From NCBI GenBank assembly GCA_026397955.1, contig JAPLTV010000052.1, positions 1 through 42,206 on the forward strand: a DNA stretch of 42,206 nucleotides, read 5' to 3'. This stretch comes from Verrucomicrobiota bacterium. Lineage in GTDB: Bacteria; Verrucomicrobiota; Verrucomicrobiia; Opitutales; UBA953. Every line of letters begins with the position of its first letter. The first letter of the stretch is position 1. The notes beneath the pieces were generated by a model. The model was not told the DNA's origin. It worked only from the letters and a program-made list of their open reading frames with translations, and searched no databases. This document shows, piece by piece, positions 15,584 through 22,365 of this stretch. Made by a program: the position numbers and the translations under genes.

Positions 15584-15640
15584 GAGTCCTTTCTGGCTGC
15601 CTGGGTAGGGATCGAACCTACGACCAAGTGATTAACAGTC
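15584..15640. repeat. Left attachment repeat (attL core)
   Basis: 57 bases identical to 22309-22365. They cover the tRNA-Asn sequence from the anticodon loop to the CCA plus 10 bases of 3' flank. The sequence diverges directly after AACAGTC, in the anticodon stem-loop, where tyrosine integrases commonly cross over. This copy is a partial tRNA and cannot be functional. Confidence 0.95.
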
Positions 15641-15677
15641 CCTTGTTTCGTTATAAAAGCCCAATGTTTTTGTAGCG

Positions 15678-15701
15678 TGGACAGGTCTTGGACAGGTTTC
15701 A
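15678..15701. repeat. Left copy of the 24-bp candidate arm-type integrase site
   Basis: The 24 bases contain two GGACAGGT units 11 bases apart, one helical turn. They match 22161-22184 exactly and in the same orientation. They lie 38 bases inside the left core repeat and 48 bases before the integrase start codon, so integrase binding here could also repress its own gene. Confidence 0.75.
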
Positions 15702-15748
15702 CGAATTGACGGAGGGGGAAAGCGGGGGCTGACTGACATTCCCACGCC

Positions 15749-17080
15749 ATGAGTCCTCATCCTTCAATCCGCCCGACGAAGAAGAACCTCGTTCCCATAA
15801 AGCAGAAAGGGAAGCAGCTGCTCGCCTTGCGACCCGACCGCAAGTGGGCAGTCTATTACTACGAGCAGAAAGGCGGCCGCCCTACCCTCTGCCGCAAGTT
15901 CTTCCGCGAGCAGGCGACGGCGGAGGAGTTCTGCATGATCAAGCGCGCGGAGCAGAACAACCTGGGCGCGGTCAACGCGATGGGGTTAAGCGACGAGCTG
16001 AAGCGGGAGGCGCTGGCCTGCTGGCGGAAGCTCGAACCGCTGCGCCACCTAGGGGCGACTCTGACCAAGGCGGTGGACTACTACATCAAAGACGCGGGGC
16101 TGGCGGCCAAGTCCAAGACGGTCGCGGAGGCGGCGGCTGCCTGCGTAGATGCCAAGCGCCGAAAGAACCTGTCCCTCGGCCACCTTAAACGCATCAGGCA
16201 AACCCTGGAGCAGTTCTGCAAGACCCATGGGAAAGCGCCAATCTCGACCATGAAGGCGGCCACGGTGAAGTCCTGGCTGGAGGCCTACGCGGAGAAGCAC
16301 GACCTGAACGAAGTGTCCTACAACGCGAAGAAGCGCTACCTGTCCTTGTTCTTCGGCTACTGCGTGGACAGCGACCTGCTGGAGTCGAACCCTGCCGACA
16401 AGGTGGAGGCGCGGGAGGAGGACGGCCGTCGTAAGCGCGTCATGCGTCCCGCCGACCTGCGGAAGTGGCTGGCCGCGTCGTCCCCTGCGGTGCGGACTGC
16501 GATCTCTATCCAGGCCTTTTGCGGCTGCCGAACGGCTGAAGTCGCCCGCCTGCGCTGGGCGGACATAAATTGGAAGGACGCGAAGGTGGTTCTGGAGGCG
16601 GACATCGCGAAGATTCCCTCCAGGCGCTCGTCGCCTATCCCGCCCAACCTGTTCGCGTATCTCATGAAGGTTCGCAAGGAGGACGACTGTCTGATCTGGG
16701 AGGCGGAACAGGATGCAGAAACCCGCGCCCGCTATCAGTCGAAACCGCCGAAGGAGCGCGCTGCCATGCTGGACGAGTGGCGGATTCATAACCTCGTCGT
16801 TGCCATGACGGAGGCGCGTGAGTCCGCCGCGCCGATTGAGTGGCAGAGGAACGCGCTGCGCGTCTCGGCCGCGTCCTATTGGTTCGACAAGACGAAGGAC
16901 GCAGCGGCCACGGCGTCGGCCATGGGACACGACCCCGACACCTTCGAGGACAACTACAAAGACATTATCCGCGAGTCCGACATGACCCGCGAGTGGTTCG
17001 AGATAGACCCTGCCGACCCCATGAAGGCGGCCAAGGTGATCGCGTTCCGACCGAAGGTGAAGCGCCGCAAGGCGGAGTAG
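15749..17080 (+). CDS. int: Tyrosine recombinase/phage-type integrase
   Basis: This 443-residue integrase has an N-terminal arm-binding region (KWAVYYYEQKGGRPTLCRKF), a core-binding domain at about residues 120-215 and a catalytic domain from about 225. Catalytic residues are R261 in CGCRTAEVARLRW, R371 in NALRVSAASYWF, H394 in AMGHDP and the nucleophile Y403 in FEDNYKD. The usual HxxR box is NxxR here (N368), a variant I recall in related integrases. It would insert the element into tRNA-Asn and excise it, probably with one of the HTH proteins as a directionality factor. It starts just inside the left end, as is usual, with GGAGGGGG about 30 bases upstream. Confidence 0.95.
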   Translation: MSPHPSIRPTKKNLVPIKQKGKQLLALRPDRKWAVYYYEQKGGRPTLCRKFFREQATAEEFCMIKRAEQNNLGAVNAMGLSDELKREALACWRKLEPLRHLGATLTKAVDYYIKDAGLAAKSKTVAEAAAACVDAKRRKNLSLGHLKRIRQTLEQFCKTHGKAPISTMKAATVKSWLEAYAEKHDLNEVSYNAKKRYLSLFFGYCVDSDLLESNPADKVEAREEDGRRKRVMRPADLRKWLAASSPAVRTAISIQAFCGCRTAEVARLRWADINWKDAKVVLEADIAKIPSRRSSPIPPNLFAYLMKVRKEDDCLIWEAEQDAETRARYQSKPPKERAAMLDEWRIHNLVVAMTEARESAAPIEWQRNALRVSAASYWFDKTKDAAATASAMGHDPDTFEDNYKDIIRESDMTREWFEIDPADPMKAAKVIAFRPKVKRRKAE

Positions 17081-17414
17081 GCGGTCGCCTCCCAATTAGT
17101 TTCTTTTCAGAAACTGCCACAGGTAAAAAAGCGCCACCATGCCTAATGCGATTCTCACGCCAAATGTCCGCCCTGATTCGTCCATTCGTCCCTCCGAAGT
17201 CATCAGGATCGGAAGGTGGAGTAATCAAGACGCTCGCCTCATTCTTAAGTTGATGAATCAGCTCGATCAGCTCATCGCGGACATTGATGGGCGGAATCTT
17301 GGGCTTGGCCTCTGCTGGCTTCTCAACGGCAACAGGCTTAGGCGCTTCGGCGGCGGGCTTATCCTGGGCGACGAGAGCTCAGGAGAGGAGGAGGAAGGCG
17401 AGGGTGTGTTTCAT
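16965..17414 (-). pseudogene. Secreted-protein gene interrupted by TGA in the signal peptide
   Basis: From the ATG at 17414 the frame reads MKHTLAFLLLS, then TGA (17379-17381), then ALVAQDKPAAEAPKPVAVE. The intact neighbour upstream begins MKYALAFILTCCALCAQDKT. The two align residue by residue, and the TGA takes the place of a TGC cysteine codon (codon 12). After the TGA the frame stays open for 137 more codons to 16965, running into the antisense of the integrase end. Only the part to about 17085 has protein-like composition. It is most likely a paralogue inactivated by one TGC-to-TGA change, possibly also truncated by the integrase gene. Readthrough or recoding cannot be excluded, but no supporting signal is seen. 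Confidence 0.7.
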
Positions 17415-17433
17415 GCTATGCATAAAAATGGGG

Positions 17434-17883
17434 TTACTTTTTGCTCCTGCCGAGCGCGACAGGCAGCTGCATGATCTGTCCCAGCGCGTTGATGTATTTC
17501 GAGGCCTCGTTAAGCTCTGCGCGCGTCGCGGGAAGGTCGGTTTTAATCTGGGCGGCGGCCATCTTCGCGTAAGCTTCGTTCATCTTTTCTTTCTCCAAAT
17601 CACGCGTGGACTCGTTGCTTTTAGAGCTAAGGCTGAGTCGCCTAACTTTTCCGATATAGGCCTGGAGTCGAACCAGCTCCTGGGCTGCTACTGTAAAGGC
17701 CTTCTTTTCCTCGTCGGTGGCAGCGTCTCCTTTGTTATAAATTGGAGACGAGGCTTTCAGATAGGCGGAGCAGACATTTTTTCGGTGATCATCAAACAGC
17801 GTAATCGACCCAAACTGAAGCGGGGTCTTATCCTGGGCGCATAGGGCGCAACAGGTTAGAATGAAGGCGAGGGCGTATTTCAT
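17434..17883 (-). CDS. Small secreted helical protein, element cargo of unknown function
   Basis: This 149-residue protein has a signal peptide MKYALAFILTCCALCAQ with several cysteines (a possible atypical lipobox, LTCC). The mature part is mostly helical and charged: DEEKKAFTVAAQELVRLQAY, then STRDLEKEKMNEAYAKMAAA and ATRAELNEASKYINALGQ. It has no motif I recognise. It is transcribed away from the replication cassette and has a near-perfect -10 (TATAAT at 17974-17979). A decayed paralogue lies 19 bases downstream. As the only cargo of the element, it could be a surface or exclusion protein; this is speculation. Confidence 0.7.
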   Translation of the reverse strand: MKYALAFILTCCALCAQDKTPLQFGSITLFDDHRKNVCSAYLKASSPIYNKGDAATDEEKKAFTVAAQELVRLQAYIGKVRRLSLSSKSNESTRDLEKEKMNEAYAKMAAAQIKTDLPATRAELNEASKYINALGQIMQLPVALGRSKK

Positions 17884-17957
17884 AGGTGGGAGTTTAGTAG
17901 AAACTTATAGGCCAATACGCAAGGCGCAGCATCGGCCGCAGCTGCGCAGGGGTCGTT

Positions 17958-21700: not shown

Positions 21701-21916
21701 ATGTGCCAAGACTACAAGGCAGGCAGCCAGGAGCAGGTCGTCGTCGAATTGAACAGCGGCCGCAGCTACTTCGTCCCGCGCGAAACGGTCGAGCGCCTGT
21801 TTCTAATTTGCCCAGACCAAGCGGCCGCGCTCGTCGCCCGCGTCTCGACTCTGCGTGAGCCATTAGACCCCTCTGGCTTGCCTTCAGAGGCGGCCTGCGG
21901 CGGGGGGAGGGGGTAG
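21701..21916 (+). CDS. Small hypothetical protein near the right end of the element
   Basis: This possible 71-residue protein begins MCQDYKAGSQEQVVVELNSG, then RSYFVPRETVERLFLICPDQ and a low-complexity GGGRG end. The first 50 residues look protein-like; the end is read from a G-rich tract. A G/A-rich sequence that could serve as a ribosome site lies 14 to 20 bases upstream. No family is recognised and it may not be translated. Confidence 0.4.
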   Translation: MCQDYKAGSQEQVVVELNSGRSYFVPRETVERLFLICPDQAAALVARVSTLREPLDPSGLPSEAACGGGRG

Positions 21917-21939
21917 TTATGTCAATAGCATGAAATTGC

Positions 21940-22143
21940 GAAATGACCACGAACGGAAAGCGCGTGGTGTCGGCCAACGCTCCACATAGGGGGGGGCTTA
22001 AAAGATTCCTTTCAAACAAGACCCCAAAGGGGGGCTATTAGAAAAGACGCGTTTGCATGAAATGACCACGAACGGAAAGCGCGTGGTGGCGGACTACGCG
22101 ACACAAAGGGGGGGCTTAAAAGATTCCTTTCGACCAAGACCCT
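21940..22143 (+). repeat. Two 85-bp direct repeats at a 119-bp period
   Basis: Copies begin at 21940 and 22059 with GAAATGACCACGAACGG. Each holds a small inverted repeat ACCACG/CGTGGT, a run of G (8 in the first copy, 7 in the second) and CTTAAAAGATTCCTTTC. They end with a short AAGACCC segment. The differing G-run length shifts the reading frame while the flanking bases stay the same, so conservation is at DNA or RNA level, not protein. They lie between the candidate origin and the right arm site. Possible roles are a packaging or partition site or extra recombination sites. Confidence 0.8.
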
Positions 22144-22160
22144 TTCCCGCGTCGAATCTT

Positions 22161-22184
22161 TGGACAGGTCTTGGACAGGTTTCA
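22161..22184. repeat. Right copy of the 24-bp candidate arm-type integrase site
   Basis: Identical to 15678-15701 in sequence and orientation, with two GGACAGGT units 11 bases apart. It lies 125 bases before the right core repeat. Further short direct repeats, ACACTTGGC and TACATTT (two each), follow within about 50 bases (22190-22228) and may be sites for an accessory protein. Confidence 0.75.
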
Positions 22185-22269
22185 ACCTACACTTGGCTAC
22201 ATTTGCTTACATTTATGCACACTTGGCCGACCCGCGCAGGGGGCGTGAATGTAGGACTAAAAGCAACAT

Positions 22270-22291
22270 AACCCCTTTATTATCAAGGGTT
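22270..22291 (-). terminator. Hairpin downstream of tRNA-Asn supplied by the element
   Basis: AACCCCTT (22270-22277) pairs with AAGGGTT (22285-22291) apart from one bulged base. On the minus strand it lies 27 bases beyond the tRNA 3' end and may replace the terminator left behind at 15560. The T run behind it is weak. Confidence 0.4.
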
Positions 22292-22308
22292 TAGTGCGTT
22301 TTAAGGGG

Positions 22309-22365
22309 GAGTCCTTTCTGGCTGCCTGGGTAGGGATCGAACCTACGACCAAGTGATTAACAGTC
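22309..22365. repeat. Right attachment repeat (attR core)
   Basis: 57 bases identical to 15584-15640. Here the repeat is the 3' part of the functional tRNA-Asn gene plus 10 bases beyond the CCA, so the element rebuilds the tRNA it entered. Confidence 0.95.

What the first reader, a model, noticed from the sequence alone, without database searches (positions are those of the whole stretch)
15584..22365. Compact element in tRNA-Asn with integrase and self-replication genes but no structural genes
Exact ends, att cores, arm sites, integrase, two HTH proteins, a PrimPol-helicase and a candidate origin fit in 6.7 kb. This is the gene logic of phage satellites or integrative plasmids, a group hardly described for Verrucomicrobiota. 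It is the best candidate for an undescribed system in this window.
Basis: partly seen in the sequence, partly recalled or inferred. Interest (0 to 1): 0.88.

Follow-up and report, generated by a model that had tools for sequence, protein, structure and literature searches.

The report
Small self-replicating element in tRNA gene
An uncultured Opitutae bacterium carries a complete 6.7 kb mobile DNA element inserted in a tRNA gene, with genes for moving and probably copying itself but none recognised for making virus particles, and related elements, several with phage-defence genes, sit in tRNA genes of its relatives.

Summary
Observation confirmed. A 57-nt exact repeat (15584-15640 = 22309-22365) bounds a 6,725 bp insertion in tRNA-Asn(gtt). 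A close relative, G013, has the empty site, identical at 161/161 and 112/112 nt; 23 of 30 same-genus loci examined are empty there. Paired arm repeats lie at both ends. The element encodes a tyrosine integrase, a four-gene overlapping operon (two excisionase/AlpA-type HTH proteins, a 67-aa protein, an 868-aa PrimPol-helicase) and, behind it, 11 GGAACA repeats in 303 bp around an AT-rich stretch, a good candidate origin. No capsid, relaxase or large-terminase family was recognised in the 7 ORFs scanned. A syntenic 8.7 kb element lies in another species of the genus, a decayed copy in the same tRNA-Asn of a third, and related integrases carry restriction or abortive-infection genes in other tRNA genes. 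Best reading: an integrative, self-replicating 'hitcher' needing a helper, perhaps a phage, to spread. Excision, replication and transfer are inferred. It fails PICMI membership (primase family, site) and fits the published class of cryptic integrated elements with archaeo-eukaryotic-type primases. New variant of a known kind.

The parts
15584..15640 (-). attL: copy of the 3' part of tRNA-Asn plus 10 nt, at the integrase side
   Evidence: 57/57 identical to 22309-22365
15677..15701 (+). left arm-type sites, two direct repeats 11 nt apart
15749..17080 (+). tyrosine integrase, 443 aa
   Evidence: phrog_1 E 8.7e-28; Arg, Lys, Arg, Tyr kept in 7 of 7 aligned relatives
17139..17414 (-). broken cargo frame: leader-like start, then an in-frame stop; 56% identical over 36 aa to an ORF of the G036 remnant (left limit approximate)
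17434..17883 (-). cargo protein, 149 aa, signal-peptide-like start (by eye); 69% identical over 122 aa to part of a 333-aa protein in G030
   Evidence: no family in Pfam above cut-off, PHROGs, PADLOC or NCBIfam
18092..18310 (+). HTH1, 72 aa, excisionase/AlpA-type
   Evidence: HTH_17 31.0 bits, phrog_66 4e-8
18307..18534 (+). HTH2, 75 aa, excisionase/AlpA-type, overlaps HTH1 by 4 nt
   Evidence: HTH_17 28.3 bits, phrog_66 1.4e-9
18531..18734 (+). 67-aa protein of no family, overlaps HTH2 by 4 nt
   Evidence: the 100-aa gene at this place in G032 is not detectably related (E 0.12)
18731..21337 (+). PrimPol-helicase, 868 aa, overlaps the 67-aa gene by 4 nt
   Evidence: phrog_2597 and phrog_35358; 39% identical to the G032 protein
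21338..21640 (.). candidate origin: 11 GGAACA/TGTTCC, five left and six right of a 73% AT stretch (21493-21518)
21701..21916 (+). ORF71, conserved small gene; a conserved DNA motif (21863-21882) lies in its 3' end
   Evidence: 46-49% identical matches in G002, G009, G011, G030
21933..22145 (+). two copies of a conserved DNA module ending GGGGGGGCTTAAAAGATTCCTTTC
22160..22184 (+). right arm-type sites, two direct repeats
22309..22365 (-). attR: 57-nt repeat, inside and just beyond the intact tRNA-Asn
22319..22393 (-). intact target tRNA-Asn(gtt)

Best explanation
An integrative and self-replicating element that is intact by sequence. The integrase recombined the 57-bp site and left tRNA-Asn whole (shown by anatomy and by empty sites). 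The two HTH proteins direct excision and switch the operon (inferred from their families). The excised circle is copied by the PrimPol-helicase from the GGAACA array at 21338-21640 (inferred). It has no transfer machinery that I can recognise, so it must hitch to another agent. A phage, probably an infecting rather than a resident one, is my likeliest helper (inferred, about 0.4; lowered from 0.45 because one argument for it rested on a phage-only collection), which would make it satellite-like. Confidence that it is a genuine integrated mobile element with its own replication genes is about 0.95. The figure given here is for the whole statement with a helper of some kind.
For: Exact ends and arms. 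Empty site in G013, 161/161 and 112/112 nt at the site, 90.8% and 90.7% over 2,757 and 1,270 bp, no gaps; 23 of 30 same-genus loci have tRNA-Asn directly beside the left neighbour gene. Syntenic relative in G032 (CAIXHF010000043.1, uncultured Opitutae): 57-nt exact repeat, 8,698 bp spacing, integrase, HTH1, HTH2, a 100-aa gene and a PrimPol-helicase 39% identical, all open. 4-nt stop/start overlaps at the three operon junctions (with my choice of start codons). Array: 11 copies against 0.11 expected; no hexamer exceeds 6 in 300 shuffles of the stretch. Related elements with both ends found in other tRNA genes.
Against: No data on circles, copy number or particles. The GGAACA array is not repeated in G032, which has only a weak TTGTCCG/CGGACAA set, and the test does not correct for my choice of region. 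The PrimPol-helicase has no Pfam or NCBIfam match, and the AlphaFold model is too poor to use (mean pLDDT 33.4). G000:C76 and G020, with related integrases, lack this replication gene, and no arm repeats were found there. One cargo frame is broken, and G036 is a remnant. No phrog_2 match in this genome. Viral contigs gave 0 relatives with the PrimPol protein, 4 partial with the profile and 2 weak with the integrase profile.
Confidence: 0.6

Rival explanations
1. An integrative plasmid, or 'cryptic integrated element', that replicates after excision and spreads without any phage: by transformation, vesicles or mobilisation in trans by conjugative elements. This overlaps the best explanation where a non-phage helper is involved.
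For: No packaging or capsid gene recognised; phrog_2 (large terminase, recalled) absent from this genome and matched in 7 of 55 genus genomes; class iii of integrated elements with such primases in PMC5862659; 10 of 72,556 plasmid records hold partial relatives of the PrimPol-helicase, 7 of them Arsenophonus plasmids.
Against: No relaxase family recognised (oriT not searched); regulators of the HTH_17 type used by the PICMI model; 70 of 50,697 phage records hold partial relatives of the PrimPol-helicase.
Confidence: 0.35
2. An immobile or dying islet: a former mobile element now kept for its cargo.
For: A broken cargo frame; a decayed copy at the same tRNA in G036; no recognised benefit gene.
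Against: Integrase and PrimPol-helicase are open, the 57-nt repeats are identical, and 23 of 30 same-genus loci lack the element.
Confidence: 0.05
3. A reduced prophage that lost its structural genes.
For: The two halves of the PrimPol-helicase match phage primase families; both HTH proteins also match a terminase-small-subunit family over the HTH part.
Against: The syntenic G032 element also shows no structural gene in the proteins scanned (for parts of it), and no phage record covers 80% of the PrimPol-helicase or of the integrase.
Confidence: 0.02

Closest known systems
Cryptic integrated elements with archaeo-eukaryotic primases (class iii of Kazlauskas et al. 2018, PMC5862659; section 11 and passages seen)
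   Same: Direct repeats, tyrosine integrase, insertion in a tRNA gene, PrimPol-type protein, no recognised phage or conjugation genes
   Different: Motif II histidine is kept here (SGGKSLH, by eye), relaxed in PrimPol-PV1; the PV1 arginine motif was not tested, so the primase family is open
PICMI satellites of Vibrionaceae (PMC10803314; passages seen)
   Same: About 6 kb; integrase, an HTH_17-type regulator, a gene between it and the primase, a primase gene, no capsid genes
   Different: Primase family (DUF3987/DUF5906) not matched; site is tRNA-Asn, not fis; two HTH genes; helper unknown
SaPI/PICI and P4-like satellites
   Same: Integrase, excision regulator, own replication protein; origin of repeats around an AT-rich stretch is recalled for SaPI
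   Different: No packaging or capsid-remodelling gene recognised; replication protein of another family; no helper known
Tycheposons (seen only through passages of PMC10872708 and one mention in PMC10803314)
   Same: Tyrosine recombinase and a tRNA border; size within the quoted 4-200 kb
   Different: Recombinase relationship untested; at the small end; no nutrient cargo recognised

Membership tests
Cryptic integrated element with AEP primase (Kazlauskas class iii) | Integrated with direct repeats by an integrase, often in a tRNA gene | tested here: met
Cryptic integrated element with AEP primase (Kazlauskas class iii) | No phage or conjugation genes | tested here: met
   7 ORFs scanned; none but the HTH-only overlap with phrog_57
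Cryptic integrated element with AEP primase (Kazlauskas class iii) | Primase of the PrimPol-PV1 supergroup (arginine in motif IV) | not tested
   no PV1 profile at hand
PICMI | Integrase and AlpA-type regulator (PF12728) | tested here: met
   phrog_1 8.7e-28; PF12728 above cut-off twice, PF00589 below its cut-off
PICMI | Primase with DUF3987 or DUF5906 | tested here: not met
   no such family at E up to 1
PICMI | Integration at fis | tested here: not met
   tRNA-Asn
PICI / P4-like satellite | Packaging or capsid-size genes (recalled) | tested here: not met
   none recognised; phrog_57 matches the two HTH proteins only over the HTH part
Phage satellite (any) | Induction and packaging by a helper phage | not testable with these tools
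   needs a culture or virus-fraction reads
Integrative mobilizable element | Relaxase | tested here: not met
   no relaxase family among the 7 ORFs
Prophage | Virion structural genes | tested here: not met
   none among the 7 ORFs
Tycheposon | tRNA site, tyrosine recombinase, 4-200 kb (as quoted in PMC10872708) | tested here: inconclusive
   site and size fit; recombinase clade untested

The most novel reading that the evidence does not exclude
A new family of minimal helper-dependent satellites in Opitutae: one integrase clade that inserts in tRNA-Asn and tRNA-Ser and swaps replication modules and phage-defence cargo, with a GGAACA origin served by a PrimPol-helicase that no Pfam or NCBIfam model recognises; if so, the first phage satellites of Verrucomicrobiota that I know of.
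Probability: 0.35. Interest if true: 0.7.

Novelty: new variant of a known kind. Interest (0 to 1): 0.5.

Why it matters
It is a fully delimited mobile element with natural empty, occupied and decayed versions of its site within one genus of uncultured bacteria. That makes it testable how small elements without transfer genes spread in Verrucomicrobiota, and it offers a compact candidate origin with its primase-helicase. The related elements suggest small integrase cassettes that carry restriction and abortive-infection genes into tRNA genes.

Tried and rejected
Searches that gave little: viral contigs with the PrimPol protein, 0 relatives from 5 candidate stretches; with the two-row profile, 4 partial from 114; with the integrase profile, 2 weak from 103; phage records with the integrase, 5 weak, all Salinibacter phages; PDB sequences, 0; Rfam over 15500-22500, only the tRNA. 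AlphaFold of the PrimPol-helicase gave mean pLDDT 33.4, so no fold search was made.

Rejected readings: prophage, since no structural gene was recognised; mobilizable element, since no relaxase was; PICMI, since primase and site fail. Other PrimPol or helicase relatives in the order and phylum match only part of the protein. Of the 13 regions fetched, all 13 were compared by tblastn and scanned for tRNAs and genes were listed for four (L153, L159, L161; L156), so nothing is claimed about the rest. A likeness of the distal module in L156 may be chance and is not used. Arm repeats were found in the window, G036 and G032 but not in G000:C76 or G020.
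Full report
What was checked. The window is contig C74 of a 2,454,854-base genome in 126 contigs. The claimed ends are exact: 15584-15640 equals 22309-22365 over 57 nt, and the right copy lies in and just beyond an intact tRNA-Asn(gtt) on the minus strand, 22319-22393. The spacing is 6,725 bp. The repeat holds the tRNA from just before the anticodon to its 3' end plus 10 nt, so insertion leaves the tRNA whole.

Empty site. The right neighbour gene (22588-23565) was found in 47 of 55 genomes of the genus, and 30 loci were returned. In 23 of these 30, tRNA-Asn stands within about 110 bp of the small left-neighbour gene, with no element between. Of the other seven, one is the window (L073), three are cut before the tRNA (L076, L080, L095), one ends 94 nt past it (L083), one has other sequence there (L099, G042) and one holds a remnant (L101, G036). 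In G013 the site matches the window's left side 161/161 and right side 112/112; over the fetched flanks identity is 90.8% (2,757 bp) and 90.7% (1,270 bp) without gaps.

Genes. The integrase is a divergent tyrosine recombinase (phrog_1, 8.7e-28; Pfam below its cut-off). In an alignment of seven relatives, Arg261, Lys288, Arg371 and Tyr403 are invariant, and the residue that is usually His in the HxxR box is Asn in all seven (the meaning of these positions is recalled). HTH1, HTH2, a 67-aa gene and the PrimPol-helicase overlap by 4 nt at each of three junctions (with my choice of starts), which suggests one coupled operon. The PrimPol-helicase matches phage 'DNA primase' families in two parts, residues 134-333 and 334-779. 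Motifs resembling the PrimPol and Walker A/B motifs are present (by eye, recalled). By tblastn it hits 70 of 50,697 phage records, none covering 80%, and 10 of 72,556 plasmid records, all partial. Both HTH proteins match excisionase/regulator phrog_66 best and terminase-small-subunit phrog_57 next, the latter only over its first 67 of 199 positions.

Candidate origin. Straight after the PrimPol gene, 21338-21640 holds 11 GGAACA/TGTTCC against 0.11 expected from the rest of the window. In 300 dinucleotide shuffles of that stretch the best count of any hexamer was at most 6 (mean 2.8); in 200 shuffles of the element no 300-bp stretch had more than 3 GGAACA. Five copies lie left and six right of a 26-nt stretch of 73% AT (21493-21518). 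The tests do not correct for the choice of region. This is the layout of iteron origins; the likeness to SaPI origins is recalled. G032 has only five looser repeats around an AT-rich run behind its PrimPol gene, so the sequence, and perhaps the origin type, is not shared.

Relatives. A search of 79 family genomes with the integrase gave matches in 20. Elements with both ends found: G032 C43, 57-nt repeat, 8,698 bp, same operon order plus a GmrSD-type HNH nuclease; its contig begins at the repeat, so the intact tRNA is not seen, and I take it for tRNA-Ser(cga) because 50 nt of the repeat equal the end of that tRNA in G020. G000 C76: tRNA-Ser(cga), 78 nt, 3,537 bp, with an HsdR-N-type protein. 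G020 C404: tRNA-Ser(cga), 76 nt, 5,168 bp, with a C5 methylase, a 259-aa and a 571-aa protein of no family. G036 C99: the same tRNA-Asn, 52 nt, 2,394 bp, a remnant with integrase fragments and no PrimPol match. With more distant integrases in other genera of the family: G056 (tRNA-Leu, 54 nt at 96%, type IIG enzyme and AbiD) and G066 (tRNA-Tyr, 67 nt at 97%, a DnaB/primase-type helicase). G041 C11 has the integrase beside tRNA-Ser with an HNH protein and an HsdR protein, other end not found. So the replication gene is not constant, and defence-type genes are frequent cargo. In the window element PADLOC was run on the 149-aa and 67-aa proteins only, with no match.

Cargo of the window element. 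The 149-aa protein is 69% identical over 122 aa to part of a 333-aa protein in G030; the frame beside it has a stop after eleven codons and is 56% identical over 36 aa to an ORF of the G036 remnant. Signal-peptide-like starts are read by eye.

Spread of the PrimPol-helicase. With the two-row profile, 19 of 372 genomes of the order matched at E up to 1e-10, over the full length only G000 and G032. In the phylum draw 57 of 387 matched, over the full length only G000 (G032 was not in the listed matches of that draw). The one hit in genome contigs is the G032 contig, CAIXHF010000043.1, 'uncultured Opitutae bacterium isolate Kiruna3_bin-4549'; from this I infer that the window's genus belongs to Opitutae.

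Distal end. ORF71 has matches of 46-49% identity in G002, G009, G011 and G030. The DNA motif in its 3' end was found in 10 of 55 genus genomes at up to 2 mismatches, with 1 hit of the reversed control. A further module ending AAAAGATTCCTT occurs twice in the window and once each in several other elements or tRNA-Met islands; a strict pattern of it hit 5 of 55 genomes, control 0, but does not match the window's own two copies. Pieces of the G032 distal end, 48-199 bp long, are 76-95% identical to a tRNA-Met island of G033, so these loci probably exchange segments.

Mechanism. Shown: precise insertion in the tRNA, absence in close relatives, open integrase and replication operon, a repeat array. 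Inferred: excision with the HTH proteins, replication as a circle from the array, dependence on a helper. phrog_2, which I recall as the large terminase, had no match in this genome and matches in 7 of 55 genus genomes; it rang in 11 of 14 control genomes. A resident prophage helper is therefore not evident here.

Comparison. It works like PICMI satellites in size and gene order (PMC10803314, passages) but is not one: the primase-family and site tests fail. It fits class iii of Kazlauskas et al. (PMC5862659, section 11 and passages): cryptic integrated elements without phage or conjugation genes. PMC13376191 (passages) shows that satellites can also move by natural competence, which would be one route here. 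In the held library, a search for papers with both 'Verrucomicrobiota' and 'phage satellite' found none; two wider searches listed 9 and 3 papers, none with a title or shown abstract about such elements in Opitutae. Of those 12, only PMC5862659 was opened.

Verdict. Real, intact by sequence, and more than chance. A new variant of a known kind, of moderate interest until excision, copy number and packaging are tested.

Noticed in passing
window 21933-22145; L056 1779(-); L069 8632(-); L070 9891; L180 8617(-); L181 9089; L183 295: Conserved non-coding module (GTGCCACGC or similar, a G-run, then AAAAGATTCCTT) near the distal end of several elements and tRNA-Met islands; function unknown, perhaps a regulatory or replication site.
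   Followed up: partly
L180, L182, L185, L186 beside tRNA-Met; L181 and L192: Islands, mostly beside tRNA-Met, carry proteins that look by eye like Sel1-repeat secreted proteins, some with ORF71-like genes; a relative of the window's cargo protein is part of a 333-aa protein in L182.
   Followed up: partly
G000:C25 end (L069 8620-8923): Probable further element beside tRNA-Met, cut by the contig end, which begins a protein like the HsdR-N-type cargo of G000:C76 (by eye).
   Followed up: no
L060 about 450-2003 (+): A 517- to 571-aa protein of no family in Pfam, PHROGs or PADLOC in a 5.2 kb tRNA-Ser element; could be another kind of replication protein.
   Followed up: partly
L099 1-391 (G042:C8): The tRNA-Asn of G042 has other sequence at the insertion site, cut by the contig start; perhaps a different insertion.
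   Followed up: no
L153 9569-11293 and L154 about 9779-11239: Two genomes of another family in the class encode a relative of the C-terminal helicase half as a separate gene near tRNA-Ser; in L153 a gene that looks by eye like an integrase stands beside that tRNA.
   Followed up: no
A2 alignment (window int residue 368): In seven related integrases the usual His of the HxxR box is Asn; whether this changes catalysis is unknown.
   Followed up: no
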